NCBI RefSeq assembly: GCF_003044185.1
Contig: NZ_PYYB01000001.1
Coordinates: 434,001-498,000, forward strand
Source: Paraconexibacter algicola
Lineage (GTDB): Bacteria > Actinomycetota > Thermoleophilia > Solirubrobacterales > Solirubrobacteraceae
Reading direction: 5' to 3'
DNA length: 64,000 nt
The notes below the pieces were generated by a model. It searched no databases and was not told the DNA's origin. It was given only the letters and a program-made list of their open reading frames with translations. Made by a program: the position numbers and the translations under genes. The number at the start of each line of letters is the position of its first letter. Within the stretch, counting starts at the first letter, position 1. Positions 47,171-62,844 of this stretch are shown here, one piece after another.

Positions 47171-47180
47171 TGACAGCCCG

Positions 47181-47197
47181 GATGGTACCGATGGTAC
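47181..47197. promoter_or_regulatory. Tandem GATGGTAC element, candidate TetR operator
   Basis: GATGGTAC occurs at 47181-47188 and 47190-47197 in the 38-base divergent region, with the palindrome GGTACC across the junction (47184-47189). The location between the TetR gene and the GH116 gene, covering where both promoters must lie, suggests a regulatory site. Confidence 0.55.
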
Positions 47198-47208
47198 GTT
47201 CTCGCTCC

Positions 47209-50200: not shown

Positions 50201-50658
50201 GCACCGGGGACGGCACCGGCAACCCGTTCGCCGACGGCGAGTGCGGCCAGTGGTACGGGCGCACGATGTCGAGCTGGTCGCTGCTCACCGCGCTGCAGGG
50301 GTCCACGGTGGACATCGCCGAGGGCCGCCTGGGCTTCGACCCGGCGTGGCGCCCGGGCGACCACCGCTCCTTCTTCACCGCGGGCGAGGCGTGGGGCACC
50401 TTCGCGCAGGTGCGGCGGTCGGGCACGCAGATCGACGAGCTGCACGTGCGCTCGGGCGCGCTGACCGTCCGGCGGCTGGACCTCGTGACCGCCCGGACGG
50501 GCCGCGTGGTAGCCCGGGTGCGCGTCCGTCGCGCCGGCGCGCGCGCCCCGGGTCCGGCCGTCACCGCCCGGACCGTGCGCGACGGCCGGCAGGTCGCGGT
50601 GCTGCTCCCGCAGACCGTCCTGCGCGCCGGCGACCGGCTGGCCGTGACGGTGGGGTAG
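47209..50658 (+). CDS. Secreted GH116-family glycosidase with N-terminal carbohydrate-binding/FnIII region
   Basis: 1149 residues from ATG 47209. Signal peptide about 1-34 (ending ASA). Residues 35-210 look like a jelly-roll binding domain (WSFEDGTTEGWRLI, RWIGRTVFLRVVDRETGPWDLVAIDDVRA), then a fibronectin-III-like domain (about 205-300). From about 325 the GH116 pattern begins (IGSGGVVLFGDGTRNQSWIF) and the catalytic barrel includes GCCTGMPTHVWHYAQ (about 681-695), GTLYLAALRATARMA and ETWNSFEFSTAATMIQQGLLGEGL (about 951-973). GH116 enzymes are retaining beta-glucosidases/xylosidases/GBA2-like. Ends in an Arg-rich beta tail. Likely repressed by the divergent TetR. Confidence 0.85.
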   Translation: MCTTPVPGPLRVGRTIALAALATLGLAAGTASAAPVHWSFEDGTTEGWRLIAGVPTGPLVDDRPRQRLHRGIPANREGRFNLTTEGRTPLDAVYDRIPDNLRGMDLVGLLGPGPSASTATLESPRFTLERPVVSLLAAGGTDRDAYVSAHLDDGTEIARTTGGPTEVLGYRQLDLSRWIGRTVFLRVVDRETGPWDLVAIDDVRANVPAMPRDLRARRVRGRAVVTWTPLTEPGIAGYRVEHASRRTGPFTALRGGLVRAGRVEDPGAPRDAERFYRVTAVATDGTESEGNVGLLRRVLELRARGRTVTYAGDRLSAIAFPVGAIGSGGVVLFGDGTRNQSWIFNIDGELTSIFPGRREAMVPNSFLAVRARPRGGTATVRALQTTPEGAFAPMRSLSFQGEYPLARYRFIDEQLPVEVREEVTSPTIPGDIAASSYPTALTTVTVRNPGSEPVEVSLLATQQNAVGLDGRGEVTGPQRRSSPAYGANVTELAEDADGATLRMRGCRAGRIVDLGVRCNGSLALSLLHPRASGTASWATSAALLHDFRDDGTVRGPRTARSPAPGRTVDGALSATVELAPGETVRFPVVFSWYVPTGPLREFGGQGQAYTTRWRDAFDVHAEVLREREDLERRTRAFHAAMHDTNIPQYVLDRVTAPISVLRSPTVFWARNGFFGGWEGFGCCTGMPTHVWHYAQSGPRLWPQIGRMWVSQWLDATSPEGLIPYRYTVPTFSMDGQTGVLLSAYRYVQDSGDLAWLRARWGTIASAMEYVVRNHDPDMDGLLTGPQPTTLDTTETGTGSWLGTLYLAALRATARMATLTGDEARATRYARIARAGGPAQDALLFNGEYHSEKPEAGVPNSVAYGDGAIDDMLLGQWWSSMLGLGELYDRSRMRASLRALYRHNFREDFLGDSPFGAQREWRVYTAPEEAGLLLMTWPRGNRPPNPPRYTDETWNSFEFSTAATMIQQGLLGEGLRIVRASADRADGRLRTDVFLGNCGTGDGTGNPFADGECGQWYGRTMSSWSLLTALQGSTVDIAEGRLGFDPAWRPGDHRSFFTAGEAWGTFAQVRRSGTQIDELHVRSGALTVRRLDLVTARTGRVVARVRVRRAGARAPGPAVTARTVRDGRQVAVLLPQTVLRAGDRLAVTVG

Positions 50659-50686: not shown

Positions 50687-50977
50687 CTACGAGGAGACGA
50701 TCGAGCGGACCGTGCTCTCGGCCGAGGCGTAGCGCTGCTGGGCCTGCTTCAGGTCCACCGAGATCTGCTCGAAGAACTGCCGTGCCTCCTCCACCTCCTT
50801 GACGTGCTGGTTGAAGCGGCTCTTGAACCCGTCCGAGGCGGTGCCGTCCCACATGCCGTCGAGGTTGCCGACGGCGCGCACGGCGTCCTGCTTGGCCTCG
50901 TCGACGAACTGGGCGGCGTTGCGGAAGAAGGTCGAGCCGTTGCCGAGGATCTCGGGGGTCACCTTGATGTGTGCCAT
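50687..50977 (-). CDS. WXG100 family protein (ESAT-6/EsxA-like), type VII secretion substrate
   Basis: 96 residues from ATG 50977 with an AGGAG site. Helix-turn-helix hairpin with the turn motif W43-D44-G45 (WDG instead of WXG's third Gly position filled normally: W-D-G). A C-terminal YxxxE (Y83-E87) matches the T7SS export signal YxxxD/E. 46 of 96 residues are identical by my hand alignment to the second WXG100 protein at 53086-53376. WXG100 proteins are small helical hairpin dimers exported by FtsK/SpoIIIE-type ATPases. Last gene of the minus-strand locus. Confidence 0.92.
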   Translation of the reverse strand: MAHIKVTPEILGNGSTFFRNAAQFVDEAKQDAVRAVGNLDGMWDGTASDGFKSRFNQHVKEVEEARQFFEQISVDLKQAQQRYASAESTVRSIVSS

Positions 50978-51025
50978 GTGCGTGCTCCTGTGTGGTTCTC
51001 GTGGTGGTCTGACGGACGTGTGCGC

Positions 51026-51244
51026 CTAGCGGCGCACCCCGCGGATCGCGGGAAGCTCGATGTAGGGCTCGACGCTCGGTGGGGGGACCGCGCGCACCAC
51101 GCCGGCCGCCGGGATCTCCGGGTCCCCGGGCGCGGTGAGGATGCCGACGGCGCCGCCGAGCAGCAGCAGCCCCAGGACCGTCGCGGCGATGGTCGCGATG
51201 CGGCGATACTTGGAGACGGGCAGTCGCAGGGAGGGACGCCTCAT
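51026..51244 (-). CDS. Small single-pass membrane protein of the type VII-like locus
   Basis: 72 residues from ATG 51244, which overlaps the pseudokinase stop by four bases (ATGA). A basic N-terminus (MRRPSLRLPVSKYRR) is followed by one transmembrane helix IATIAATVLGLLLLGGAVGIL and a Pro-rich extracytoplasmic tail. It could take the place of the small membrane subunit EssA, but size and sequence do not prove it. Tightly coupled between pseudokinase and WXG100 genes. Confidence 0.7.
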   Translation of the reverse strand: MRRPSLRLPVSKYRRIATIAATVLGLLLLGGAVGILTAPGDPEIPAAGVVRAVPPPSVEPYIELPAIRGVRR

Positions 51245-53016
51245 CGACCCACCCGGAACCCGAGGCGCCGCAGGCGGCGGACGCTCTCTCGCAGATCGGC
51301 GTCGGCCCGGAGCGCCTCGCGACGGAGGCGACGCGTCGGCGCTCGCTGCCGCAGGGCGACCGAGTACCGGTCCCAGCGGGTCGCGGCGCTGCTCAGCCGT
51401 CGCTGTACCCCGTCGGTGGCCACCGCGGCGATCGGGCCGAGCTCCGCCAGCGCGTTGCGGGCGGCGCGGTAGGTCTCCGCCAGGTCGCGGCCGCCCTGGA
51501 TGCGCTCCTCGAGCCGCCGCGCCTGGAGGCCGCCGACGGGCTCCGAGCGCTGCTCGCCGAGATCCTCGAATACCGTCTGGATCCCGCGCACCAGCGCGGT
51601 CGGCAGCCGTGGTGGCACGGCGCCGTCGAGCGCGGCGGTCGTGATCGTGCGGGCGCAGATCGCCTGGCTGGCCGAGGCGCACCGCGCGACGAGGGTCCGG
51701 TCGCGCGCGGGTCGCGCAAGGACGACGCCGTCGGCCGCCGTGTATCGGAGGATCTCGGTGCCGCCCGCGGCGACCACGGTGGCGGTGTCGGTCGGGTCGA
51801 TGCCGAGACCCTCGAGGGTCTCGCGGTTCAGCGGGTCGGGCGGCGGACCAAACGGGAAGACGGCGAGACCGGTCGACGTCCCGGGCACCGCGCCCTCGGG
51901 CCGCCCGGTGATCGCTGCCCGTGCCCCGGCGAAGGTCGCTGGTGCCGCGTCGAGCAGCGCGGGCACCGCGATGCCGTCGATCTCGGCGACGGGGCGCGGC
52001 TCGGGCGCGAGCAGCCGTCCGCCGGCGAGCCCGAGCGCGACGACCGCCATCCCGGACGCGGTGATGAGGCCGGCTCGTGCGATGCGGCGCCACGTGTTCG
52101 TCGGGGTGGCGTCCTGGGCTTCCGGCGAGGCGACGAGGACCCGGTCGATTCGCGTGACGCTGCCGATCTCGGGCAGGTGCGCCACGGTCCGGCCGAGCGG
52201 CACGCGCGTGCTGCTGCCGTCGGTGGTCGCGGCGAGGAACGCCTCGACGAACGCGGTCGGGCTGGGCCAGCGCTCCTGGGGGTCGAGGGCGAGCGCGCGG
52301 GCCAGGACGCGTTCGGCGCCGGGCCACCAGGGGGCGTCGAGCTCCGGGATGACGACGGGGGCCGACCGACGGACCACGACGGCGCCGTGGTCGGCGCCCT
52401 CGTACGGCGCCTGGTCGGCGAGGGCCAGGAGGGCGAGACCGCCGAGGCCGAAGACGTCGCTGCGCGGCTCGGCGCGCCCGGCGATTGCCTCGGGTGCGAG
52501 ATGGCGCATGCGCTCGAGCAGGGTGTCGTCCGCGACCCGGGTGGCGCCGCTGAGGCGCGAGTCGCCGAGGTCGGCGAGGAGGCCGTCTCCGCGCCGGTGG
52601 ACGAGGATGCTCGCCGGGCGGACCTCGCCGTGCACGATGCCGACGGCGTGTGCGGCCTCGAGTCCCCGGGCGACGTCGAGCAGGACCCGTCCGAGACCGC
52701 CGACCGTCAGCGTGCCCGCGCTGTCGGCGAGCGGCACGGCGTCGACGGCTGCGGTGACCACGTAGAACCGGCCCCCGGGCAGGTAGCCGGCGTCGAGCAC
52801 CGGCGTGAGCCCCGGGTGCTCGATCCCGGCGATCCCGCGGACGACCCGGAGCAGGTCGTCGTCCTGCGCGCCTTCGGCGAGGAGGTGGAGCCGGATCGTG
52901 ACCCGGCGGCCGAGCGCGGTGTGACGCGCCCGCAGGACGGTCGAGCCGGCGCCGCGCGAGACGACGCGCTCGACGACGTAGCCGTCGATCTCGGGAAGGG
53001 TGTCCTGCAGGGTCAT
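51241..53016 (-). CDS. Membrane pseudokinase, EssB/YukC-like in architecture
   Basis: 591 residues. Residues 10-265 have a Ser/Thr kinase fold pattern but key residues are changed: VAIK lysine is R42 (RVTIRLHLL), HRDxKxxN is H129-G130-E131-x-R133-x-x-S136 (HGEVRPAS), and DFG is D149-L150-G151; the APE motif (174-176) and later D187 are kept. It should therefore not phosphorylate efficiently. One membrane helix (about 314-334) follows, then about 255 residues outside, mostly helical near the end. Firmicute EssB/YukC has just this order: cytoplasmic pseudokinase-like domain, single helix, extracytoplasmic helical domain. It lies between two WXG100 genes, with ATGA overlap to the next gene. Confidence 0.82.
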   Translation of the reverse strand: MTLQDTLPEIDGYVVERVVSRGAGSTVLRARHTALGRRVTIRLHLLAEGAQDDDLLRVVRGIAGIEHPGLTPVLDAGYLPGGRFYVVTAAVDAVPLADSAGTLTVGGLGRVLLDVARGLEAAHAVGIVHGEVRPASILVHRRGDGLLADLGDSRLSGATRVADDTLLERMRHLAPEAIAGRAEPRSDVFGLGGLALLALADQAPYEGADHGAVVVRRSAPVVIPELDAPWWPGAERVLARALALDPQERWPSPTAFVEAFLAATTDGSSTRVPLGRTVAHLPEIGSVTRIDRVLVASPEAQDATPTNTWRRIARAGLITASGMAVVALGLAGGRLLAPEPRPVAEIDGIAVPALLDAAPATFAGARAAITGRPEGAVPGTSTGLAVFPFGPPPDPLNRETLEGLGIDPTDTATVVAAGGTEILRYTAADGVVLARPARDRTLVARCASASQAICARTITTAALDGAVPPRLPTALVRGIQTVFEDLGEQRSEPVGGLQARRLEERIQGGRDLAETYRAARNALAELGPIAAVATDGVQRRLSSAATRWDRYSVALRQRAPTRRLRREALRADADLRESVRRLRRLGFRVGR

Positions 53017-53034
53017 GGCGCGTGCAGAGGCCTG

Positions 53035-53078
53035 CCGGTGCGGGGCCCGACCGGGGGGACGGCCGGGCCCCGCACCGG
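53035..53078 (-). terminator. Strong 15-base-pair hairpin between WXG100 and pseudokinase genes
   Basis: CCGGTGCGGGGCCCG (53035-53049) pairs perfectly with CGGGCCCCGCACCGG (53064-53078) around a 14-base loop. It lies 7 bases beyond the WXG100 stop and 18 bases before the pseudokinase ATG on the minus strand. No T tract follows, so it may be a partial terminator or a stabilising 3' hairpin that keeps WXG100 mRNA high compared with the downstream genes. Confidence 0.7.
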
Positions 53079-53085
53079 GAGGAGG

Positions 53086-53376
53086 TCAGGTGGCGACGGT
53101 CCCGCGGACCTCGTCCTCGGCCTGGTCGTACTCGTTGCGGGCGCTCCGAAGGTCCAGGGCGAGCCGCTCGAAGAACTCCTTGGCCTCCCGCGCCTCGCGC
53201 AGGTGAGTGTGGAAGCGGGACTTGAACGCCTCGGATGCCGTTCCGTCCCATCCACCGTCGAGGCTGGCCACGGCGTTCTTGGCCTTGGCGATGGCGGTCT
53301 CCATCTTGTTGGCCGCGTTGTCGAACGACACGGCACCCGCCTCCAGCGCTTCCGTCGTGATCTTGATGTTTGCCAT
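53086..53376 (-). CDS. WXG100 family protein, second copy
   Basis: 96 residues from ATG 53376 with an AAGGAGA site. W43-D44-G45 in SLDGGWDGTAS, then FKSRFHTHLREAREAKEFFERLALDL, and Y83xxxE87 at the C-terminus. Same length as the copy at 50687-50977, with identical turn region, so the two may form a heterodimer. A promoter-like element (TTGCGC-N12-TAGATT) lies 44 bases upstream, inside and beyond the end of the EssC-like gene, so this gene has its own start signal and a strong hairpin after it, consistent with high expression. Confidence 0.93.
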   Translation of the reverse strand: MANIKITTEALEAGAVSFDNAANKMETAIAKAKNAVASLDGGWDGTASEAFKSRFHTHLREAREAKEFFERLALDLRSARNEYDQAEDEVRGTVAT

Positions 53377-53420
53377 GCGTGTCTCCTTGGGTTGCTGACC
53401 GCGTCCCGCGCGGACGACTT

Positions 53421-53444
53421 AATCTATGCAGAATCTTGGCGCAA
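53421..53444 (-). promoter_or_regulatory. Promoter-like element B of the type VII-like locus
   Basis: Read on the minus strand: TTGCGC, 12 bases, TAGATT, with TTGCGT 17 bases upstream of TAGATT as a possible -35. It overlaps the stop codon of the EssC-like gene and stands 44 bases before the WXG100 start, which carries a good SD. The same spaced pattern occurs at 59692-59715 and 62853-62876. Confidence 0.6.
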
Positions 53445-56400
53445 CGCAATGTCGGGTCGCGCCACCTGCACGGGAACGACCTGCCCGCCGTCGACGAGCA
53501 CACCCCGACCGGGAAGCCGTGGCGCCCGCTGCAGCGACCGCGGATAGGTCACCCCGAAGACGTCCCCGTCGTCGACCGATGGCTCGAGGTGCACCGCGCA
53601 GCCCTGCCGACGCAGGGTCTTCAGCCATGGCGAGTAGTGCCGCAGCTGCGCGGACTCGATGGCGGCGATCACGCGGACGGCCCCGTCCCGCCCGGCGGCG
53701 AGGAGCGCCTCGAGATCGTCGTCGGCTCGCAGGACGTCCTCCAGCTCCACCGCATCGTCGACCACGACGAGCAGGACGGGACCGTCGGGGTCGCGGAACT
53801 CCGGCACCCGCGTCAGCAGCGCCTTGAGCGCCGCGGCGCAGTCGGCCACACCACGCACCTGCGACGTCCACCCGGGCATCCCGGCGAGCGACGACCGGCG
53901 CGGGAGCAGCAGATGGGCCTCCGCGACGTCGTCGATCAGGCCCTGGGCGATCGTCGCGACCGTCGTCGAGCGCCCGGTCCGCATCGGACCCGCGACCAGC
54001 AGGTGGCCGCTCTCGAGGCTGACGCCGATCGCCGAGAGACGCTCGCCCTCCACGCCCAGGGTCGCCGTCAGGCGACCCTGGGCCGGCCCGAGCGGTGCGA
54101 GGTCCACCACGGTCGGCATCCGCCCGATCGCCGGCGCACGCTCGATCTCGCGGTCGGCCACGGTCGCGGCCCAGGCGCGGAACGCGGCGTCCTCCTCCGT
54201 CGCCAGGGTCGTCGCCGCGGTCCGCGCGATCTGGACCTCGAGGTCCCGATCGAGGAATCCGCGCCCCGCGGGCAGGTCCGGGCCACCGACGCCTGCGGCG
54301 AGCCCCAGCAGCGCATAGTCGTCCTCCGCGGCCATCCGCAGGACGAGCCGCCGCGGGACGGCGGCCGCGATCGGCGTCGGGATCGATGCCCGGCGGTCGC
54401 CGGAGATGACGAGGTGGATCCCTGCGCCCCGGCCGTCGGCGACGAGCCGGACGACGAGATCCAGGAGCCGCCCGCGCTCGACGTCCTGGAACGCCTCGGC
54501 GAACGCGGTCCAGCCGTCGACCAGCAGGACGTGACGGGGCAGGGTCGCGTCGGGTCGCCGCTCGCGGAGCGTGTCGAGGTCGTTGGCGTGCTCCTGGACG
54601 AACGCTCGCTGGCGCTCCTCCAGCGTCTCGACGAGCAGCTGCAGCACGCGCTCGACGCGCTCGACGTCCTCCGGCACGACGACGGCGGAGGTGTGCGGCA
54701 GGTCCGCGAGCTGCCGCAGCCCTCCTCCTCCCGCGTCGATGGCGTGCAGGTGCAGTCGTCGGACCGGGGTGTCCGCGGCGAGGCTCGCGGCGATCTGGCG
54801 CAGCGTGGACGACCGCCCCGAGCCCGACGCCCCATAGACCAGGAACGAGCCGACGGCACGGAGGTCCACGCGCGCGACGGTCTGTCGTTGGCGGCGAGGC
54901 TCGTCGGCCAGTCCGAGGGTCGCCACGCCGTCCGGTTCGGGACCCAGGTCCCCGAGGTCGGCCCGTGCGATCGCGGGCGGGAGGGGCGCCAGCCACGGCC
55001 GCGGGGGCGCGACCTCCCCGGCCAGTGCTGTCGCCTCCTCGATCGTCGCGACGAGCCGCTGCAGGTCGGTCGGCCCCTGGTCCACGTCCGGCCGGGCGCT
55101 TGCGCCGACGTCGTCGGAGCGCAACCGGATGCGCACCGAGCCGTCGTCCTCGCCGGGGCGCGGGGTCCAGCCTCCGCCGTAGGCGGTCTGGACCTCGGTC
55201 AGCTCGCCGGGGCCGATCCGCACCAGGACGCGTCCCGGGATGGAACGCGGAAGCCGGGCCGCGTCGGGGACGTCGACGACGTCGTCGCTGTCCTCGGTGG
55301 ACGCGACGCGCAGCGCCATCCGCAGGGTCGTGTTCGCGCGGATGTTCGCCGTGATCGCACCGCTCGGGCGCTGGGTGGCGAGGACGAGGTGCACCCCGAG
55401 GGAGCGACCTCGCTGGGCGACGTCCACGACGCCCGCCACGAACGCCGGGACCTCCTTGGCGAGCGTGGCGAACTCGTCGATGACGATGACGAGTGGCGCC
55501 GGCGCGTCGGCGGAGCGGCGCTCGAGCTCGAGCAGGTCCTTGGCACCGGCCGCGGCCAGCAGGTGCTCACGGCGCTTGAGCTCCGCCTCGAGCGAGACGA
55601 GCGCCCGTCGGACCTCGTGCTCGTCGAGATCGGTGACGAGGCCGACGCAGTGCGGGAGCTGTCCGACGTCCTTGAACGCCGCGCCGCCCTTGTAGTCGAT
55701 CAGGAGGAACGACAAGCGCGACGGCGGGTGCGCTGCCGCGAGCGACGCGATCATCGTCTGCAGCAGCTCGCTCTTGCCGGCGCCGGTGGTGCCGGCGACG
55801 AGTCCGTGCGGACCCTGGTCGCGCAGATCGATCTCCCAGGGACCGTCCGGCCCGGCACCGAGCGGCGCGGCGAGCCCTGCCCCGGTGAGGTCGTCCCAGC
55901 GGTCCATGATGGGCTCCGGCTGCAGGTCCGTGAGATCGAGCAGCTCGAGCAGCGAGACGCGCCGGGGCAGCTCTCCGCCGCCGGCGGCGGTCACGTCACG
56001 CAGCGGGGCGAGGCTGCGCCCGATGCGGTCCGCGGTCTCGAGCTCCAGCTGGTCGACGGTCATGTCCGCGATGTGGACGCCGCTGGCCGCCCAGGTCGCG
56101 CTGCCGCGCCCCGGCTGGTCCGGGTGGAGCTCGACGATGGCGCCGCACCCACCGGGGAGGTCGGCGCGCTGCCCGGCGAGCCAGAGCACGTGCACCTCGT
56201 GCTCGGCGCAGCCCTCGAGCAGGGACGCCACGACGCTGCGGTCGGGTGCGACGACATCGTCCAGCACCAGCAGCACGCCGGTACGCCCCGTCTGGCGGGG
56301 ACGGTCGTCCGCGCGTCGTTCCGCGAGCACCGCGATGACCGTGCGGACGAGCTCGTCGGTCGCCTGCCGTCCGATCGCGATGCGGTCACCGTCGATCAGG

Positions 56401-57821
56401 GTCGAGGGCGCGGTGACGTGCGGCAGCCACGAGAGCCAGGTCTCCTGCTCGGCGAGCGCCTCGGAGATCCCGGCCACGATGACGAGGTCGAGCGGGCTGC
56501 GCAGCGTCGCGGCCTGCACGAGCATCGCGCGGGCGGCGGCGTGGCGCGCGGCCTCCGGGCCGACGACGCCGACAGCGCCCACCGTGCGCAGGTCGACCAT
56601 CACCGGAACGGCAGGGACCGTCATCAGCGGCTCGAGGCTGTCGCGGGCCTCCTGCCGCAGCTCGATGTCGCCGGTCCGCGGGAGCTCGATGGTCGCCTCG
56701 GTCGGCTGGTCCGCGGTGCCGAGACGCAGTGCCATCGCATCGGGGTCGGTCGCCCTGCGCTCCCAGAGCTCGGCTTGGAGGCCCGTCGCACGCGCCTCCA
56801 GCTCGGCGAGGTCCGGTGCGAGCCGCCGCCGGGCGGCCCGCTCGTGGGCGTGGTCGATCACCAGCCGCTCCCGTTGCTCGACGAGGTCGTGCTCCCACGC
56901 GCGGACGTCCTGCGCGTGCTCGGAGTCGTCGTAGCGCCGGTCGGCGATCGCGTTGGCGAGCAGCAGCACGGGCGTGAGGCAGGCCATCACGATCGCGATC
57001 GGAGAACGCGTGATGAGGTAGATCGCGATCCCGATGACCATCGGCATGGCGATCAGGAACCAGGGGATCTGCTGACGCCGCTGGCGCATGGGCGGGCTGT
57101 CCAGACGCACCGATCCGGGGGCGTAGGTCGTGCGGATCCGGGGCGGCCGGTTGAAGGGCACGGCGCCGGCCGCCCCGGCGGCGGGGACGCGGGAGGCGGC
57201 GACACGGACGGTCAGCGGCGCGTCGACCACGGCGAAGACCGTGCGGCCCGCCTCGACGACCGCGCCACGCTCCAGGACCTCCGGGGTCTCGGGGCGCAAT
57301 GGCCGACCGTCGACCGCCGTGCCGTTGCTCGTGCCGAGGTCGCTGACGACCACCGTTCCGCCGGGGTCCACCACGAGCGCGACGTGCTCGCGAGACAGCG
57401 CCGGATCCTGCACGGTCACGTCGGCGGCTTCCGCCCGGCCGATGGTCGTCCGCCCGGGGGGCAGGGCGATCCGCGCGCCGGCCCGACATCCGCCGACGAT
57501 GCGCAGCTCGACCGCGGTCGCCGCGACGTCGACCTCCCGACCGAGGCGGCCCAGGGCGACGATGTCTCCGTCCCGCAGGCCACTGGCCGCGACGGTGGTC
57601 ACGCCGGAGATCGCCCCGAGCCGCCGGACGTCGAGGCCCCCCGGCGCGTCGACGCCGAGCCGGTCGGCCAGCGCCGCCGCGACCGCACCGACGGTCGCGG
57701 TCGCGGGCGCGTCGATCTCGACGTCGACCGGATCACGTCGCGGCCCCGGAATGACCGAGAGCCGCAGCGTGGAACGGGCCACGCGGACCGGGTCCTCGCG
57801 GCGCTCGCGCATCTCGGTCAC
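53424..57821 (-). CDS. FtsK/SpoIIIE ATPase of type VII secretion, EssC-like, with N-terminal Ubl-like and FHA domains
   Basis: 1465 residues from GTG 57821. Residues 15-95 resemble the ubiquitin-like YukD/EsaB or EccD N-terminus (ending GLRDGDIVALGRL). Residues about 105-195 are an FHA domain with G128-R129, S143, H146 and N166, able to bind phosphothreonine. Two membrane helices (about 252-292) follow, then three ATPase modules: Walker A GTTGAGKS near 677-684, degenerate GASGSGRS near 997-1004, and GPMRTGRS near 1276-1284 (Lys replaced by Arg in the last two). Order and size match EssC of Firmicutes more than EccC of mycobacteria, which lacks FHA domains. It powers export of WXG100 proteins across the membrane. 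Confidence 0.93.
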   Translation of the reverse strand: MTEMRERREDPVRVARSTLRLSVIPGPRRDPVDVEIDAPATATVGAVAAALADRLGVDAPGGLDVRRLGAISGVTTVAASGLRDGDIVALGRLGREVDVAATAVELRIVGGCRAGARIALPPGRTTIGRAEAADVTVQDPALSREHVALVVDPGGTVVVSDLGTSNGTAVDGRPLRPETPEVLERGAVVEAGRTVFAVVDAPLTVRVAASRVPAAGAAGAVPFNRPPRIRTTYAPGSVRLDSPPMRQRRQQIPWFLIAMPMVIGIAIYLITRSPIAIVMACLTPVLLLANAIADRRYDDSEHAQDVRAWEHDLVEQRERLVIDHAHERAARRRLAPDLAELEARATGLQAELWERRATDPDAMALRLGTADQPTEATIELPRTGDIELRQEARDSLEPLMTVPAVPVMVDLRTVGAVGVVGPEAARHAAARAMLVQAATLRSPLDLVIVAGISEALAEQETWLSWLPHVTAPSTLIDGDRIAIGRQATDELVRTVIAVLAERRADDRPRQTGRTGVLLVLDDVVAPDRSVVASLLEGCAEHEVHVLWLAGQRADLPGGCGAIVELHPDQPGRGSATWAASGVHIADMTVDQLELETADRIGRSLAPLRDVTAAGGGELPRRVSLLELLDLTDLQPEPIMDRWDDLTGAGLAAPLGAGPDGPWEIDLRDQGPHGLVAGTTGAGKSELLQTMIASLAAAHPPSRLSFLLIDYKGGAAFKDVGQLPHCVGLVTDLDEHEVRRALVSLEAELKRREHLLAAAGAKDLLELERRSADAPAPLVIVIDEFATLAKEVPAFVAGVVDVAQRGRSLGVHLVLATQRPSGAITANIRANTTLRMALRVASTEDSDDVVDVPDAARLPRSIPGRVLVRIGPGELTEVQTAYGGGWTPRPGEDDGSVRIRLRSDDVGASARPDVDQGPTDLQRLVATIEEATALAGEVAPPRPWLAPLPPAIARADLGDLGPEPDGVATLGLADEPRRQRQTVARVDLRAVGSFLVYGASGSGRSSTLRQIAASLAADTPVRRLHLHAIDAGGGGLRQLADLPHTSAVVVPEDVERVERVLQLLVETLEERQRAFVQEHANDLDTLRERRPDATLPRHVLLVDGWTAFAEAFQDVERGRLLDLVVRLVADGRGAGIHLVISGDRRASIPTPIAAAVPRRLVLRMAAEDDYALLGLAAGVGGPDLPAGRGFLDRDLEVQIARTAATTLATEEDAAFRAWAATVADREIERAPAIGRMPTVVDLAPLGPAQGRLTATLGVEGERLSAIGVSLESGHLLVAGPMRTGRSTTVATIAQGLIDDVAEAHLLLPRRSSLAGMPGWTSQVRGVADCAAALKALLTRVPEFRDPDGPVLLVVVDDAVELEDVLRADDDLEALLAAGRDGAVRVIAAIESAQLRHYSPWLKTLRRQGCAVHLEPSVDDGDVFGVTYPRSLQRAPRLPGRGVLVDGGQVVPVQVARPDIALRQDSA

Positions 57822-57840
57822 CCCCGACCCCCGGACGACG

Positions 57841-59685
57841 TCAGATCACGCTCGTGCGACGGAACCCGGGCGGCGGACCGCAGTCGCAGTCCGGCAGCTG
57901 GCTGCCCCCACCGCCGGTAGGCGGCGGCACCGACGTGCCCGGGTCCGCCGGCGTCGCCGGCGCGGGCTTCTTGTCGCAGTCCTGGGGGAAGGGGCGCTCG
58001 AAGTACTCGAACGAGCCGTCGAGCAGCGTCAGGTCCGCACTTGCGGAGAAGGGTCCGAGCGTCGCCTCCGCGCTGAGCCCGAGGGCGCCGCTGCCCTTCG
58101 CCTCCACCTTGACGCAGTTGGCGGCCCGTGGATCCCCGACGGGGTAGACCGGGGACACCGTGGCGTCCAGCGGGAAGAGCGAGCCCTTGACGCCCGCGAC
58201 GAGCGAGGCTCCTGGGGCGGCGCCCCCCGGACCGATCAGCAGCTCACCGCCGAGACGGGCTCGGAGCGAACCGGAGAGCTCGGCGCCTTCGGGAGCCAGG
58301 TACTCGCGCTCGAGGACCGGGCGGGCCCGGGCGTCCCCTGGGAACCGCCCCGAGACCTCGAAGCCCGTGGCCGTCTTGACCCCACCGCCGCTGTACCTCA
58401 GCGATCCGGAGGCGTCGAGCTGCACCTTGGGCGTGAACGTCATCGCGAGCGGCACCGGGGGCGGGGAGATCTGGGTCTTGATCGACGCGAGCTCCGCCGA
58501 GCAGGCGAGGGAGGCCTTGACCTCTGCGTAGGCCCGGGTCTCGCTGGTGACGACTCCCCGCACGTCCAGCGTCACGCCGACCGGCACCTCGACGTTCGTG
58601 AACCGGATCTTCCGCTTGGCGAACTCGTAGCGGAACCGGCCGTCGAGGCCCAGCTTGCTCTCGATCCCCAGATCCGAACCGGCGGCGAGCTTGCACGACG
58701 ACATCTTCTTCGCCCGCGCGGAGGCCCTGGAGGCGGGCTTCGCCGGCACCGCTGCCTGAGCGAACCCCGGGATGTCGATGTTCACGTAGTCATAGGCCTC
58801 GGGAAGGCTCGCGGGGACGAGCTTGACGGTGCCGTCCTGCGCGACGCCGGCGACCCGCCCGACGAACGGCAGGTCGATGGCGCCCTTCGCAGGGACGACG
58901 AGATGGCTGCCGATGGTCGGCGCTGCCTCACCGGCCGCGAGCTGGACGCCGACCCCGTCGGACAGCTCGCGCGCGGCGGTGAGGTCGCGGCTCTCGAGGA
59001 TCTCGGTCCCGGTCGCGGCGACGAAGGCCGGCACGGCGTTGCCCGGCGCCGGGGCGGTTCCTACGGTCAGCGTCGCCGGCCCGAGCGTGCGTCCCCCGGT
59101 CACGGTGAAGACGCTGTACGAGTACTGCGATCCGGGCGTCAGGCCGGTGTCGCTGGCCGCGCTGCCGACCACGGCGACCGCCGTGCCCGCTGACGGCGTC
59201 GCGGGTGCGTCGAAGCCCGGGGCACGGCGCACGACGTAGGACGCGCCGGCCGGACCGCTCCACGAGAACGACAGCGTGGTCGGCGAGATCTCCGAGGGCG
59301 TGAGCGCGCTGGCGGTCGGGAGCAGCACGTAGCGCAGCGTCAGCTTCGCCGAACGGCGGGCCCGGATCCGGACGCGCGCGGGCGATGCCGCCGGACCGTA
59401 GAGGCGACCGTCGTGCTGGAGGACCGCGGCGTCGACCGTGTAGGTCGCGGCGCGGAGCTTCAGGGTCCGGCGGAGGACGGTGCCCCGGTCGGCCTTCGCG
59501 GCGACGACGCGGCGAGCGCCGGCGCGGAGCGTGGCGGTGGCCGGCACGCCGGAGGGGGTGCGGATCTCCAGCTTCAGCGAGCCCGTCCGCGGCGCGGCGT
59601 CGGCGGCTGGAGTGGCGAGGAGCGGGAGCATGCCGGCCGCGATGACGACGGCGACGCGGGGTGCGCGGAGCTGGTTGGAGAACAC
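57841..59685 (-). CDS. Secreted fibronectin-III protein in the type VII-like locus
   Basis: 614 residues from GTG 59685. Signal peptide about 1-30. A beta domain (about 33-120) and a fibronectin III domain (about 120-210: TLSFSWSGPAGASYVVRRAPGF) are followed by beta-rich sequence without known motif and a Cys/Pro/Gly-rich C-terminus (DCDCGPPPGF). No family for the rest. It lies 19 bases before the EssC-like gene on the same strand, hence likely cotranscribed. A candidate promoter ends six bases upstream of GTG, suggesting a leaderless transcript. Confidence 0.72.
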   Translation of the reverse strand: MFSNQLRAPRVAVVIAAGMLPLLATPAADAAPRTGSLKLEIRTPSGVPATATLRAGARRVVAAKADRGTVLRRTLKLRAATYTVDAAVLQHDGRLYGPAASPARVRIRARRSAKLTLRYVLLPTASALTPSEISPTTLSFSWSGPAGASYVVRRAPGFDAPATPSAGTAVAVVGSAASDTGLTPGSQYSYSVFTVTGGRTLGPATLTVGTAPAPGNAVPAFVAATGTEILESRDLTAARELSDGVGVQLAAGEAAPTIGSHLVVPAKGAIDLPFVGRVAGVAQDGTVKLVPASLPEAYDYVNIDIPGFAQAAVPAKPASRASARAKKMSSCKLAAGSDLGIESKLGLDGRFRYEFAKRKIRFTNVEVPVGVTLDVRGVVTSETRAYAEVKASLACSAELASIKTQISPPPVPLAMTFTPKVQLDASGSLRYSGGGVKTATGFEVSGRFPGDARARPVLEREYLAPEGAELSGSLRARLGGELLIGPGGAAPGASLVAGVKGSLFPLDATVSPVYPVGDPRAANCVKVEAKGSGALGLSAEATLGPFSASADLTLLDGSFEYFERPFPQDCDKKPAPATPADPGTSVPPPTGGGGSQLPDCDCGPPPGFRRTSVI

Positions 59686-59686
59686 G

Positions 59687-59715
59687 GCATCAATCTACAC
59701 TTTGGATTGATGCAA
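59687..59715 (-). promoter_or_regulatory. Promoter-like element C and overlapping inverted repeat
   Basis: Read on the minus strand: TTGCAT, 12 bases, TAGATT, the TAGATT ending six bases before the GTG of the secreted FnIII gene. A perfect 9-base inverted repeat, GCATCAATC/GATTGATGC (59687-59695 and 59705-59713), overlaps it, which could be an operator. It also lies downstream of the 59739-60527 gene and may attenuate its transcript. It is AT-rich compared with its surroundings. Confidence 0.6.
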
Positions 59716-59738
59716 CGCCAGCCGGTCTGTTGCGACGG

Positions 59739-60527
59739 CTACCGTCGCCTCGGACAGCGGACCCGGCGGTTGCCGTTGTCGGGGTCCGAGCAGCGGATCA
59801 CCCGTCGGGGCACGTCGAGCACGAGGCTCCTGCGCCCCCGCTTGAGCCGATAGCTCTGGCTCTTGGTGATGCTGCCGGGGCGGCTGACGACGAAGTAGAT
59901 GCGCTGACCGGCTCGCACCGGCATCGGCGGTCGAGCGAGCTCCCGCCGAGAGTTGCGGTTCCCGCGCCGCTCCACGTAGCGGAAGCCGTTCCCGCAGACC
60001 GGTCGGCAGAACACGTCGAGCTGGGTACCCGCGTCGACGGCGTCCAGCTCGCGCAGGACGAGCGCCCGGATCACGTCGCGATCCTTCGCAGGCCGCGGCT
60101 TGCGGTACTCCAGCTCGATGGCCGGGAAGTCGAGGACCACGGGCGCGTCACTTCCTGCCGTCGTGAACGTGACCGTCTGGAGGACGGGATAGGTCGCCTG
60201 GTCGGGAGGACGGACGAAGATCCGGGCCGCGTACTTCGCGCGCGGGACCAGCCCGCGCAGCGTCGTGGTCGTCCGGTGCCCCGACGACGGGACGACCCGC
60301 TCGGCGGTCCGCGTCCCGCGAACCGCAGGGGCGCTGTACTCCACGAGCCACTTCCACCCTGCGGGGACGTCGAAGGTGATGTCCAGCGCGGCGGTGGTTC
60401 GCGTCACGGTCCCCACGGTGACCGTGACTCCGGGCGCCGGCGTCTGCGCTTGGACGACGCCGAAGCCGACGAGCAGGATCGTCCCGACCAGCGCGACCAG
60501 TGCCCCACACGTGCGGGCCGGACGCAT
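59739..60527 (-). CDS. Exported FnIII-like protein of unknown function
   Basis: 262 residues from ATG 60527. An N-terminal hydrophobic segment (ALVALVGTILLVGFGVVQA) serves as signal or anchor. The sequence then resembles a fibronectin-III domain (VEYSAPAVRGTRTAERVVP, YAARIFVRPPDQATYPVLQTVTFTTAG), then a beta-rich domain with CRPVCGNGF and a basic C-terminus. Its ATG overlaps the upstream gene's stop by one base (TGATG). Confidence 0.72.
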   Translation of the reverse strand: MRPARTCGALVALVGTILLVGFGVVQAQTPAPGVTVTVGTVTRTTAALDITFDVPAGWKWLVEYSAPAVRGTRTAERVVPSSGHRTTTTLRGLVPRAKYAARIFVRPPDQATYPVLQTVTFTTAGSDAPVVLDFPAIELEYRKPRPAKDRDVIRALVLRELDAVDAGTQLDVFCRPVCGNGFRYVERRGNRNSRRELARPPMPVRAGQRIYFVVSRPGSITKSQSYRLKRGRRSLVLDVPRRVIRCSDPDNGNRRVRCPRRR

Positions 60528-60910
60528 CAGTCGACCCCGGTGGGACCGTCGCTCGGGGGTGCGGGCCGCGGCGCCGGACGCGGCACCACCACGGGCGGGC
60601 GCGGCACGACGGGCGGACTCGGCTGCACGGGCGTCACCGGCGCGCTGCGGGACGGGGTGCCCCTCGCCGGCTGGACGGGTGACGCGACGCTCCGCTTCGG
60701 CCGCCGGGGTCGTGCGAGCGCGCGGACGTCGATCCGCCCGGCGGGCAGTCCGGCCGGGGGCACCGTCACCGGACCCGGGGCCGCAACCACCTCGGTGGCC
60801 CCGAGGTCGCGCCACGGATCGTCGTCGGGTGCGGTCGCCTGCGCCACCCCGAGCCCGCCCACGGCGCCCAGCAGCGCGAGCGCTCCGCCGAGGACCGCCG
60901 AACGGCTCAC
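60527..60910 (-). CDS. Proline-rich protein with N-terminal membrane segment
   Basis: 127 residues from GTG 60910 (GTGA overlap with the kinase stop). Hydrophobic AVLGGALALLGAVGGLGVAQA near the start, then Pro/Arg-rich low complexity (PVVPRPPVVVPRPAPRPAPP). It is probably anchored or exported; Pro-rich chains of this kind can span the cell wall. Translationally coupled on both sides in the kinase operon. Confidence 0.65.
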   Translation of the reverse strand: MSRSAVLGGALALLGAVGGLGVAQATAPDDDPWRDLGATEVVAAPGPVTVPPAGLPAGRIDVRALARPRRPKRSVASPVQPARGTPSRSAPVTPVQPSPPVVPRPPVVVPRPAPRPAPPSDGPTGVD

Positions 60911-62844
60911 CGCCCCGCCTCCTTCACCGGATATCCCAGGCGCCCGGCTCGCGCCACGCGGTCGCGCAGCGCTCGGAGCGCCGAGGACAGCGCGCGCCCG
61001 GCCTTCCTGTGCCTGCCGCGGTCCGCGGTCGCGGCGGCGCGGGCGAGCGCGCGGGCTCGCGCTGCCGCCCGGTCAGTGCTCGCCACGACGCTCCGCAGCG
61101 CCGTGGACCGGCCCTCGCGGCGCTCCTGCGCCGCCAGGGGACGCAGTCGCGCGGAGACCGACCGCAGCGTGCCGACGAGCTCGCGCGCGGCGCGGGCCTG
61201 TGTCGCGCCGCGCCGCGACGCCTCCAGCACCCCCTTGGCGGTCCCGACCGCAGCGCGCAGGCGGTCGACCTGGACGCGAACCGCCTCGAGCCGCGCGCGC
61301 GGGATCCCCAGCGGCACGGACGTCGCGCCGCGGACCCGCAGCGTCGCGACGAGACGGAGACAGGCGACGGTCCCGTCGCAGCGCAGCTCGACGTCACCGG
61401 TCGTGGTCGGGACGACGAAGCGGTCGCCATCCTGCATCGCGACGAAGGCACCGAGGCGGACTGGGCGCGGGGCACGCAGCGGCACGCCGTCGACCGGGGC
61501 GGCACCGGCCAGCGGCCCGCGGCTGGGCAGCACGGTCGCCCTCAGCGTGGTCCCGGCGACCCGCACGGTGCCCCCGGAGTCGGTCCGCCGGACCTGCGCG
61601 GCCGCGTCGACGGGTCCGAAGCTCAGCCCGCCCCCGAGGCGGACCGGCACCGTGTCGGCAGGGCCGGCCGGCCGGGCGAGCGCGAACCCGGCGACGAAGA
61701 GCAGGACGGCGGCGAGACCTCCCACGATCCGCGCGTCGACGGCCGGGAGCGTGGGCCGTTGACGGGCGGCACGCGGCTCGGGATCCCGCCTGGGCTTCGG
61801 TGGCGTCTCGCGCTCCGCCGCGGCGGCACGGGGCGGTGCGGGCACGGCGACGACCGGCGGCGGGGGCTCGACGTCGCGCTCGGGCGCCGCGACGGGCTCG
61901 GGCACGATCGCGGGTGCAGGATCAGGATCCGGGGCGACCGGCGTCGCGCTCTCCAGGAGCGGGGCCGACGGGAACATCGGCGCCAGCCCGAGCCGCTCGG
62001 AGCCCAGGCCGACGAGTGCGTCGCGGATGTCCGCGACGAACCGCTCGACGTCCGTCTCGCGGTCGACCGGATCCTTCGCCAGAGCCCGATCGAGGACCTC
62101 CTGGATCCGTCGCCCCTCGGGGCCGTCGAGCCCCGGAAGGCGCGGCGGGGGATCGGCGAGATGCGCCATGAGCACGGCCGCCTCGGTCGGACGCGGGAAC
62201 GGCACCTGGCCGGTCAGCAGCTGACACGCGAGGCAGGCGAGGGAGTAGACGTCCGAGGCCACCGTGAGGTCCTCGGCCTTGATCTGCTCCGGGCTCGCGT
62301 AGGCGGCCGTCCCGACGAACGCTCCCGTGGCGGTGAGCCCCGCGTCCGCGACGCCCTTGACGACCCCGAAGTCCGCGAGGTACGCCCACCCGGCGCGCGT
62401 GAGGAGCACGTTCTGGGGCTTGATGTCGCGATGGACGAGTCCGGCGTCGTGTGCCGCGGCGAGCGCGCTGCCGACGGCGCGGAGCAGCTCGAGCGCTTCC
62501 CGGCCGCTGAGCGGCCCCTGGCGCAGGCGGTCCCCGACGGTCCCACCGTCGACCAGCTGCATCGCGATGTAGAGGTGCCCGTCCGCCGATCCGAAGTCGT
62601 AGACGGGGACGACGTGCGGATGCTCGAGTCCTGCGGCGGTCCGCGCCTCACGCTCGAACCGCTGGACGAACTGGGTGTCCGAGGCCAGGCTGCGGTCCAT
62701 GACCTTGAGCGCGACCGGGCGATCGAGGGAGACCTGACGGGCGGCGTAGACGGTCGACATGCCGCCGAGTCCGACCAGGCGCTCGATCCGGTACGCGCCG
62801 ACGACCTCCCCCGCCTGCAGATGTCTCCCGATCCCGACGCTCAC
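60907..62844 (-). CDS. Transmembrane Ser/Thr protein kinase (PknB-like)
   Basis: 645 residues from GTG 62844. Complete kinase core: glycine loop LGGMSTVY (about 26-33), K47 in VALKVMD, HRDIKPQN (138-145), DFG (158-160), PEQ (185-187) and D198. A Pro-rich linker leads to one membrane helix (about 372-390) and an extracytoplasmic region of about 250 residues, Arg/Ala-rich and probably helical at the end. It probably phosphorylates partners of the type VII-like machine; the FHA domain of the EssC-like ATPase is an obvious reader. The promoter-like element A lies 8 bases upstream of GTG. Confidence 0.92.
   Translation of the reverse strand: MSVGIGRHLQAGEVVGAYRIERLVGLGGMSTVYAARQVSLDRPVALKVMDRSLASDTQFVQRFEREARTAAGLEHPHVVPVYDFGSADGHLYIAMQLVDGGTVGDRLRQGPLSGREALELLRAVGSALAAAHDAGLVHRDIKPQNVLLTRAGWAYLADFGVVKGVADAGLTATGAFVGTAAYASPEQIKAEDLTVASDVYSLACLACQLLTGQVPFPRPTEAAVLMAHLADPPPRLPGLDGPEGRRIQEVLDRALAKDPVDRETDVERFVADIRDALVGLGSERLGLAPMFPSAPLLESATPVAPDPDPAPAIVPEPVAAPERDVEPPPPVVAVPAPPRAAAAERETPPKPRRDPEPRAARQRPTLPAVDARIVGGLAAVLLFVAGFALARPAGPADTVPVRLGGGLSFGPVDAAAQVRRTDSGGTVRVAGTTLRATVLPSRGPLAGAAPVDGVPLRAPRPVRLGAFVAMQDGDRFVVPTTTGDVELRCDGTVACLRLVATLRVRGATSVPLGIPRARLEAVRVQVDRLRAAVGTAKGVLEASRRGATQARAARELVGTLRSVSARLRPLAAQERREGRSTALRSVVASTDRAAARARALARAAATADRGRHRKAGRALSSALRALRDRVARAGRLGYPVKEAGR

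What the first reader, a model, noticed from the sequence alone, without database searches (positions are those of the whole stretch)
50687..62844. Compact type VII secretion-like locus of EssC type in a Thermoleophilia-like actinobacterium
Seen: two 96-residue WXG100 genes, a 1465-residue FtsK/SpoIIIE ATPase with FHA domain and two membrane helices, a membrane pseudokinase with a one-helix layout, a 72-residue single-pass protein, a Ser/Thr kinase and three exported proteins, all on one strand with tight spacing. Known: T7SSb of Firmicutes uses EssC with FHA domains, EssB with pseudokinase-like fold, EssA, EsaA and EsaB; mycobacterial ESX uses EccB-E and MycP, none of which are recognisable here. 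Inference: this is a third, minimal lineage, actinobacterial by host but EssC/EssB-like by design, with a YukD-like domain fused to the ATPase.
Basis: partly seen in the sequence, partly recalled or inferred. Interest (0 to 1): 0.9.

Follow-up and report, generated by a model that had tools for sequence, protein, structure and literature searches.

The report
Third lineage of type VII secretion
An actinobacterium carries a compact set of genes for a protein-export machine of the tuberculosis-bacterium kind, but built around a motor from a separate, apparently undescribed family that has a ubiquitin-like piece fused to it and may be switched by protein kinases.

Summary
In detail: nine tight minus-strand genes (50687-62844) encode two WXG100 proteins, a 1465-aa FtsK-type ATPase, an active Ser/Thr kinase, a membrane pseudokinase, a 72-aa single-pass protein and three Sec-type exported proteins. 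The ATPase is neither EccC nor EssC: in two trees its homologues form a separate clan (99% SH-aLRT), spread through Actinomycetota. Its hallmark is an N-terminal ubiquitin-like domain fused to an FHA domain and homologous to the N-terminus of EccD (hhalign 90.8%, E 1.2e-6; controls at most 1.6%). EccB, EccE and EssB give no match in the window genome or nine relatives; EccD gives none in the window genome. The pseudokinase is not an EssB: it is a full-length paralogue of the neighbouring PknB-type kinase, ectodomain included. Most likely mechanism: a T7SS exporting the WXG100 pair, with EccD's ubiquitin-like module built into the motor, and docking to the membrane pseudokinase switched by phosphothreonine-FHA binding (candidate T288; weakest step). 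Closest description: T7SSd of Garrett et al. 2024, from which it differs; no named T7SSd motor could be placed. New variant of a known kind.

The parts
60907..62844 (-). Active PknB-type Ser/Thr kinase, 645 aa: VALK 44, HRD 138, DFG 156, linker, one TM helix near residue 371, ectodomain with Cys pair and helical end
   Evidence: NF033483 E 2.6e-85, 287 bits, below its cut-off of 450; motifs
60527..60910 (-). 127-aa exported Pro-rich protein, hydrophobic N-terminus; no family
59739..60527 (-). 262-aa exported protein, hydrophobic N-terminus; weak fn3 only (E 0.14 on the longer ORF)
57841..59685 (-). 614-aa exported protein with a weak fn3 domain (E 3e-4, below cut-off); no match in 12 relatives searched
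53424..57821 (-). T7SS-type ATPase, 1465 aa: ubiquitin-like domain, FHA, two TM helices, three FtsK-type domains
57549..57776 (-). ubiquitin-like (EccD N-terminal/YukD-type) domain of the ATPase, residues 16-91
   Evidence: beta-beta-alpha-beta-beta model; hhalign vs EccD; 68 of 80 named homologues
57222..57512 (-). FHA domain of the ATPase, residues 104-200, with R129, S143, H146, N166 of the phosphothreonine pocket kept
53086..53376 (-). WXG100 protein 1, 96 aa, WDG at 43, YDQAE at 83
51241..53016 (-). membrane pseudokinase, 591 aa: VAIK Lys to Arg (VTIRL from 39), HRD to HGE (129), DFG to DLG (149); one TM near 312; same ectodomain family as the active kinase
52153..52155 (-). T288 of the pseudokinase: candidate FHA-docking phosphothreonine in SVTRIDR, 24 residues before the TM helix (inferred)
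51026..51244 (-). 72-aa single-pass membrane protein (TM near residue 18), start overlapping the pseudokinase stop by 4 bases; no family found
50687..50977 (-). WXG100 protein 2, 96 aa, WDG at 43, YASAE at 83

Best explanation
The locus is a compact, phosphorylation-controlled type VII secretion system whose motor belongs to a third ATPase clade, distinct from EccC (T7SSa) and EssC (T7SSb). Shown by sequence or model: the motor carries in one chain a ubiquitin-like domain homologous to the one EccD supplies, an FHA domain with the phosphothreonine pocket residues kept, two TM helices and three FtsK-type domains, of which the first keeps its Walker motifs throughout the rows examined. The genome gives no match to EccB, EccD, EccE or EssB. 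Beside the motor lie two WXG100 proteins with WxG and YxxxE motifs, an active transmembrane PknB-type kinase, and a degenerate paralogue of that kinase with the same ectodomain. Inferred: (1) the WXG100 pair is the cargo or co-cargo and is recognised through its YxxxE tails; (2) the fused ubiquitin-like domain works in cis on the first ATPase domain, as EccD's domain does in trans; (3) the kinase ectodomain senses an envelope signal and the kinase phosphorylates T288 in the juxtamembrane SVTRIDR of the pseudokinase; (4) the FHA domain binds that phosphothreonine, docking or releasing the motor at the membrane, a phospho-switched counterpart of the EssC FHA-EssB pseudokinase contact; (5) the exported fn3-like proteins act at the cell surface and go out by Sec, not by this system.
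For: Clade: 82-row tree, family of 63 rows apart from 16 EccC-side and 3 EssC rows (99*, 100*, 100*); 73-row tree, 53 rows at 99*. Ubiquitin-like domain: AlphaFold2 model, pLDDT mostly above 80, E16-24 E32-39 H44-55 E64-66 E87-91; hhalign against EccD N-termini 90.8%, E 1.2e-6 over 74 columns; FHA against EccD 0.1%, N-domain against FHA 1.6%, 8 column shuffles 0.1-0.2%; the EccD model's positions 8-83 hit the N-terminus of a family ATPase at E 6.8e-5 (G073). A domain model from 15 rows hits 68 of 80 named family ORFs, 0 of 16 EccC-side, 0 of 4 EssC-side. FHA: best solved matches include the OdhI and GarA FHA domains. Missing partners: EccB, EccE and EssB in 0 of 10 family-bearing genomes, while EccB and EccE ring in both EccC-bearing controls and EssB in the B. 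subtilis control; EccD none in the window genome, 0 over cut-off in 13 genomes. WXG100 in 100 of 118 loci, kinase-like gene in 43, EccB 2, MycP 1, EccD 1 (an EccC-side motor), EssB/EsaA/EssA/EsaB 0; control, 10 EccC loci: EccD in 10, EccB in 4. YxxxD/E in 18 of 98 short WXG100 tails at these loci against 3.6 expected. D1 Walker A K/S and Walker B DE in 115 of 115 rows; the D3 lysine is Arg in 90. Linker motif T-x-[ILV]-[DE]: 16 of 32 linkers in loci with an intact FHA against 5.7 expected (0 of 1000 shuffles reach it), 1 of 12 where the FHA is degenerate; five members of the window's 7-row clade have it 22-25 residues before the TM helix.
Against: Nothing is shown to be secreted; all is sequence and model. 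The phospho-docking step rests on a motif noticed in the alignment and then tested, so its shuffle test is partly post hoc; the FHA-motif association (16 of 30 against 1 of 11 loci, Fisher p 0.014) rests on only 2 independent contrasts and is not significant once kinship is counted. 14 of 30 intact-FHA loci lack the motif; 4 kinase ORFs without a detected TM helix were dropped from that count. Kinase presence does not clearly follow FHA integrity (30 of 66 against 12 of 41), and only 43 of 118 loci show a kinase within the stretch read. YxxxD/E is lacking in 80 of 98 WXG100 tails, those of the near relatives L075 and L077 shown in the output among them. hhalign against free EsaB is weak (8.9%), and Pfam YukD hits only 1 of 58 N-termini (E 0.0027). 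The ubiquitin-like fold was not confirmed by a structure search, because the FHA domain filled the lists. The EccD search had no positive control in the same call; G391 has a partial, sub-cut-off EccD match beside a second, EccC-side motor. Of the 10 clan loci fetched, eight show no WXG100 gene in the stretch read (L215, L216, L219, L221-L225). The 614-aa protein has no match in 12 relatives, so its membership is unproven.
Confidence: 0.68

Rival explanations
1. It is an already described subtype, T7SSd (Actinomycetota: Olsenella, Bifidobacterium), or a close cousin, seen in a new host.
For: T7SSd has a WXG100, an FHA-bearing ATPase with an intact phosphothreonine motif, a TM Ser/Thr kinase and a short single-TM protein (PMC11217815). 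The window has one or more of each.
Against: That paper places the T7SSd ATPase with EssC rather than EccC and finds no ubiquitin-like protein at any T7SSd locus. In my tree two Actinomycetota ATPases do fall with EssC (L214, L217; 100*) and give no significant hit to the fused-domain model, while the window clan stands apart. No TsdI-like protein (Sec signal, Ig domains, C-terminal TM) is in the window locus. No named Olsenella or Bifidobacterium TsdC could be placed.
Confidence: 0.16
2. A derived ESX-4-like T7SSa that lost EccB/D/E, with the EccD ubiquitin-like domain moved onto EccC.
For: The fused domain is closest to EccD's N-terminus, and EccCa/EccCb models match at 375 and 327 bits.
Against: The ATPase does not fall inside EccC, the EccC rows do not align to the FHA and N-terminal columns, and the fusion is found in 68 of 80 named members across many families.
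Confidence: 0.07
3. Not secretion: a kinase-FHA-FtsK envelope regulatory assembly in which WXG100 proteins are structural partners that stay in the cell.
For: Two kinases, an FHA domain and exported fn3-like proteins dominate the locus; no larger protein with a recognisable WXG100 domain exists in the genome.
Against: WXG100 genes sit beside most family motors; in relatives also cell-wall-hydrolase-type proteins (CHAP in L075 and L079; NlpC/P60 with a weak WXG100 match in L081), RHS proteins (L084, L194) and a 'putative T7SS-secreted protein'; YxxxD/E tails are enriched.
Confidence: 0.09

Closest known systems
T7SSd / T7SSe (Garrett, Higginson and Palmer 2024, PMC11217815)
   Same: FHA-bearing motor with intact phosphothreonine residues, WXG100, TM Ser/Thr kinase, short single-TM protein
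   Different: Motor in a separate clan with a fused ubiquitin-like domain; a kinase-pseudokinase pair; no TsdI; T7SSd described as lacking any ubiquitin-like protein, T7SSe as having a free one
T7SSb (EssC, EssB, EssA, EsaA, EsaB)
   Same: FHA domain on the motor; membrane pseudokinase with one helix (by layout)
   Different: Motor outside EssC; pseudokinase derived from a PknB-type kinase, not from EssB; ubiquitin-like domain fused, not free; EsaA/EssA/EsaB not found at 118 loci
T7SSa / ESX (EccB-E, MycP)
   Same: Paired WXG100s with WxG and YxxxE; ubiquitin-like domain of EccD type
   Different: No match to EccB, EccD, EccE in the genome; FHA domain present; the ubiquitin-like domain is carried by the motor itself
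PFNA operon of bifidobacteria (PMC8430577)
   Same: Kinase, fn3 protein and FHA gene; 24 of 118 loci of the family search carry at least two of its MoxR, DUF58 and transglutaminase genes
   Different: The window locus lacks MoxR, DUF58 and transglutaminase; in the PFNA paper the words WXG100, FtsK and type VII do not occur

Membership tests
Type VII secretion system (broad sense) | FtsK/SpoIIIE-type membrane ATPase of the EccC/EssC superfamily with several NTPase domains | tested here: met
   EssC model 535 bits over residues 223-1304, EccC models 375 and 327 bits, all below their own cut-offs; best solved chains: 4nh0 (FtsK/SpoIIIE protein; I recall it as T. curvata EccC), YukB and EccC5
Type VII secretion system (broad sense) | WXG100 (EsxA-type) protein encoded at the locus | tested here: met
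   two, above Pfam cut-off; the only two in the genome
Type VII secretion system (broad sense) | Export of the WXG100 protein dependent on the ATPase | not testable with these tools
   needs an experiment
T7SSa (ESX) | EccB, EccD, EccE | tested here: not met
   none in G000: EccD, EccB, EccE
T7SSa (ESX) | MycP | tested here: inconclusive
   no subtilase family among the window proteins scanned; 1 of 118 family loci; not searched genome-wide
T7SSa (ESX) | Motor inside the EccC clade | tested here: not met
T7SSb | Motor inside the EssC clade | tested here: not met
   (three EssC references, plus two Actinomycetota rows that join them)
T7SSb | EssB (YukC) gene | tested here: not met
   TIGR03926 0 of 12 genomes, rings in B. 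subtilis control; hhalign pseudokinase vs EssB 0.1% (EssB profile of only two rows)
T7SSb | EssB-like fold of the pseudokinase | tested here: inconclusive
   PknA/PknB/PknI lead the list; a family that is not listed is not excluded; ectodomain mostly below pLDDT 50
T7SSb | EsaA, EssA, free EsaB | tested here: not met
   no match among window proteins (E up to 1); no phmmer hit at E 1e-4 in 118 family loci; the same queries find their like in L197/L199; not searched genome-wide
T7SSd | FHA-bearing motor with intact phosphothreonine residues | tested here: met
T7SSd | TsdI: large Sec protein with Ig-like domains and C-terminal TM | tested here: not met
   614- and 262-aa proteins have an N-terminal hydrophobic stretch only and weak or no fn3
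T7SSd | Motor clusters with EssC (per PMC11217815) | tested here: not met
   no named TsdC was available
T7SSd | TsdH: short single-TM protein | tested here: inconclusive
   the 72-aa protein fits by size and one TM helix; no TsdH sequence to compare
T7SSd | No ubiquitin-like protein | tested here: not met
   ubiquitin-like domain fused to the motor

The most novel reading that the evidence does not exclude
A third major lineage of type VII secretion, widespread in Actinomycetota and not among T7SSa-j, in which the motor itself carries the ubiquitin-like module that ESX takes from EccD and T7SSb from EsaB, so that no EccB/D/E or EssB core is needed, and in which motor docking is switched by phosphothreonine on a membrane pseudokinase that arose by duplication of the system's own kinase.
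Probability: 0.55. Interest if true: 0.8.

Novelty: new variant of a known kind. Interest (0 to 1): 0.7.

Why it matters
What the ubiquitin-like protein of T7SS does is unclear: Garrett et al. say so for EsaB. A motor with that domain in cis would turn the question into one about a single polypeptide that can be truncated and mutated. The family also suggests how few parts a T7SS needs, ties FHA-phosphothreonine signalling to secretion, and gives a possible secretion context to the MoxR-DUF58-transglutaminase-fn3 genes known from bifidobacteria as the PFNA operon. The four plasmid-borne motors whose annotation I read are labelled only 'FtsK/SpoIIIE domain-containing protein', so surveys by name miss them.

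Tried and rejected
EssB kinship of the pseudokinase: rejected at sequence level; the structure search neither supports nor excludes it.

Degenerate first FHA domain, as in EssC, at the ATPase N-terminus: rejected (hhalign 1.6% against FHA, 90.8% against EccD).

Idea that the 'missing' ubiquitin-like protein of T7SSd is fused to TsdC: not supported by the only EssC-side actinobacterial motor with an FHA that I could read (L214, no significant hit of the domain model). L214 is unnamed and has no kinase in the stretch read, so it may not be a T7SSd.

Kinase presence explained by FHA integrity: weak (30 of 66 against 12 of 41; one of the 41 is the second, FHA-less motor of L075). FHA integrity and linker motif: Fisher p 0.014 but only 2 independent contrasts.

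Common ectodomain by plain BLAST between the two window kinases: E 0.89, not significant; it needed profiles of three rows each.

Profile score as a separator of the clan: clear, but not when later loci are added: outlying clan members score 466-881 and the EssC-side L217 874; the clan rests on the trees.

WXG100-headed cell-wall hydrolases in L075 and L079: not borne out; their CHAP proteins show no WXG100 match, only the NlpC/P60 protein of L081 has a weak one.

tRNA-Leu called inside the ATPase gene (53778-53859): taken as a false positive, since it lies in a conserved coding frame.

Novelty in print: searched PMC full text with the term sets (one search was for PFNA). In the listings shown, PMC11217815 is the one paper on T7SS subtypes across phyla; I saw no description of an ATPase with a fused ubiquitin-like domain. 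Subscription papers and preprint servers are mostly not held. Papers: PMC11217815, abstract, Methods, parts 1 and 2 of 3 of Results, Discussion and passages read, supplements not read; PMC8430577, passages only; all others, search listing only. The YxxxD/E signal and the pT+3 rule of FHA domains are recalled, not read.

Among the 118 loci, L085, L087 and L088 fall with EccC and L076 holds half of a second ATPase; they were not dropped from the counts. L136 looks like the same record as L094, so the 80 named rows are not wholly independent of the 15-row model. Only 57 of the 80 named loci gave N-termini for the 58-row alignment. Trees are quick single-model searches with SH-aLRT alone; the root is not inferred. 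EssC is represented by 3 Bacillota references. The kinase count depends on fetched stretches of different length.

Full report
What is there. The finding's coordinates hold a same-strand run of nine genes with gaps of -4 to 69 bases, read from 62844 down to 50687: a 645-aa kinase, a 127-aa exported protein, a 262-aa exported protein, a 614-aa exported protein with a weak fn3 domain, a 1465-aa ATPase, a WXG100 protein, a 591-aa membrane pseudokinase, a 72-aa single-pass protein and a second WXG100 protein. Third-position GC is 0.88 to 0.98 in each. Upstream lies a gene with homing-endonuclease-type repeats and a helix-turn-helix (62885-63637), downstream a convergent glycoside hydrolase family 116 gene. 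The two WXG100s are the only PF06013 matches in the genome, and both carry WDG and a C-terminal YxxxE.

The motor. NCBIfam's EssC model scores 535 bits over residues 223-1304 (cut-off 778), EccCa 375 (509) and EccCb 327 (347): a superfamily member that reaches none of the named families' cut-offs. At E 1e-40 or better, 15 of 399 genomes of the same class match, the window's own included, some in part only; two of them (G397, G024) hold only motors that fall with EccC. At E 1e-60, 62 of 396 genomes of the phylum match, a number that includes EccC. Of that phylum sample, the 20 loci fetched and 10 of 12 fetched belong to the window's clan by score or tree. A scan of named genomes returned the 80 best of at least 597 stretches: Streptomyces, Microbacterium, Arthrobacter, Cellulomonas, Nocardioides, Actinomadura, Nonomuraea and others. 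Plasmids of Streptomyces, Curtobacterium and Rothia carry it too (rows L192-L194 and L200).

Trees. On 965 aligned columns (TM region to second ATPase domain) 82 motors split into three: 16 on the EccC side (100*), 3 EssC (100*) and 63 of the window's kind (99*); the window sits in a set of 7 (98*) with L075 and L077 nearest. Adding 12 lower-scoring motors and thinning the rest gave 73 rows: 53 of the window's kind at 99*, EccC at 100*, and EssC joined by two actinobacterial motors, L214 and L217, at 100*. Profile scores first looked cleanly split (clan ORFs 918 bits or more apart from fragments, EccC and EssC 506-691 apart from the fragment L088), but the later loci fill the gap (clan members 466-881, EssC-side L217 874), so the clan rests on the trees, which are quick searches without an inferred root.

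The fused domain. The 15 aligned family members share about 90 residues before the FHA domain. The model of residues 1-223 on a 58-row alignment gives strand-strand-helix-strand-strand, then an FHA domain (mean pLDDT 85.6). Profile comparison of the first 90 columns (107 rows) with eight EccD/YukD-type N-termini gives 90.8%, E 1.2e-6 over 74 columns; the FHA domain gives 0.1%, the N-domain against FHA 1.6%, eight column-shuffled versions 0.1-0.2%; against free EsaB only 8.9%. Independently, NCBI's EccD model, searched against whole genomes, hit the N-terminus of a family ATPase through positions 8-83 at E 6.8e-5. A model built from 15 rows finds the domain in 68 of 80 named family ORFs at E 1e-3 (four of the 12 misses begin after it), in 0 of 16 EccC-side and 0 of 4 EssC-side ORFs. 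Pfam's YukD finds it in 1 of 58, which may be why it has gone unnoticed.

Missing core parts. In the window genome and nine relatives that carry the family motor, EccB, EccE and EssB give no match, while EccB and EccE are found in both EccC-bearing control genomes and EssB in the B. subtilis control. EccD gives none in the window genome; of 13 genomes searched four have a match, none over the cut-off: three cover only its ubiquitin-like N-terminus in separate frames of 394-505 residues (G391, G254 and G397, which carry EccC-side motors), the fourth is the family motor of G073 itself (without a positive control in that call). In 118 loci, EccB was seen at two (L165, L183, both Streptosporangiaceae, about 4 and 7 kb off), MycP at one (L183), EccD at one (L085, an EccC-side motor), and EssB, EsaA, EssA, EsaB at none (positions). 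The same queries found EccD at 10 of 10 EccC loci and EccB at 4.

Kinases. The 645-aa kinase keeps VALK, HRD and DFG; the 591-aa protein has Arg for the VAIK lysine, HGE for HRD and DLG for DFG. L075 has the same two genes, and L077 one degenerate kinase; the degenerate members grade from mild (L075) to strong (window). Profiles of the two kinds match over their full length (E 1.2e-67) and in the part outside the membrane alone (98.8%, E 5.5e-17), so the pseudokinase looks like a duplicate of the system's own kinase. Its kinase domain resembles PknA/PknB/PknI best. In the 7-row clade every region read holds a kinase-like gene (a fragment at the edge in L081).

A possible switch. The FHA residues R, S and N are kept in the window and in 66 of 111 family rows in all, and lost together in 41. 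In the linker between kinase domain and membrane I noticed T-x-[ILV]-[DE]. It occurs in 16 of 32 linkers from loci with an intact FHA (5.7 expected by shuffling, 0 of 1000 as high) and 1 of 12 from loci with a degenerate FHA (1.3 expected). In the window, L075, L077, L079 and L080 it lies 22-25 residues before the membrane, in L078 62, and in the two loci with both kinases it is on the pseudokinase. This fits FHA binding with an acidic residue three places after the phosphothreonine (recalled). It was noticed before it was tested, and the association with FHA integrity rests on 2 independent contrasts, so it is a lead.

How it most likely works. See Best explanation. [quoted passage not shown] Here both contacts would exist in another form: the first in cis, the second phospho-switched. 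D1 keeps its Walker residues in 115 of 115 rows, while D3's lysine is Arg in 90.

Cargo in relatives. Beside family motors lie cell-wall-hydrolase-type proteins (CHAP in L075 and L079; NlpC/P60 with a weak WXG100 match in L081), RHS proteins (L084, L194) and a 'putative T7SS-secreted protein' (Streptomyces atratus plasmid). The window genome has no such gene recognisable by WXG100. YxxxD/E tails are found in 18 of 98 short WXG100 ORFs at these loci (3.6 expected), so most lack it.

Placement. Against T7SSa-j the window lacks the EccC or EssC kinship of the motor, the EccB/D/E or EssB core, and TsdI; it shares with T7SSd the FHA motor, kinase, WXG100 and perhaps the short single-pass protein. 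Named TsdC sequences were out of reach, and T7SSc and T7SSe-j were compared only by the paper's description, which is the main gap.

Noticed in passing
L083, L092, L113, L119, L143 and others (24 of 118 loci): At least two of MoxR ATPase, DUF58 and transglutaminase genes, some with PP2C, kinase or giant Ig/fn3 proteins, lie near the FHA motor: the gene set known from bifidobacteria as the PFNA operon, there linked to host cytokines, may be part of a secretion system.
   Followed up: partly
L194:1509-21869 (Rothia terrae plasmid p2): A 54-kb plasmid carries the motor, a kinase and RHS proteins, a possible mobile competition system.
   Followed up: no
L165 and L183 (Nonomuraea, Microtetraspora): EccB about 4 and 7 kb from the family motor with no EccD found in the stretch; possibly a hybrid or a neighbouring ESX remnant.
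   Followed up: partly
L075:17469-20000 with L076:1-2070 (G382): A second motor about 6 kb from the first, with the ubiquitin-like domain but apparently without an FHA domain.
   Followed up: no
L214 (G508) and L217 (G577): Actinomycetota motors that group with EssC, one with an FHA domain and one without; candidates for T7SSd-like systems.
   Followed up: partly
G391:C399, G254:C129, G397:C107: Proteins of 394-505 residues beside EccC-side motors match only the ubiquitin-like N-terminus of EccD: perhaps a further way of carrying that domain.
   Followed up: no
window 62885-63637 (-): HNH_repeat plus helix-turn-helix protein directly upstream of the kinase; possible regulator or mobile-element remnant.
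   Followed up: no
window 46900-50658 (+): Large glycoside hydrolase family 116 protein, convergent with the last WXG100 gene.
   Followed up: no
window 53778-53859 (-): ARAGORN calls a tRNA-Leu inside the ATPase gene, most likely a false positive.
   Followed up: no
L089:8788-12144 (G000 beyond the window end): 1119-aa protein with RTX repeats and collagen-like repeats a few kb upstream; L075 also has an RTX protein next to its kinase.
   Followed up: no
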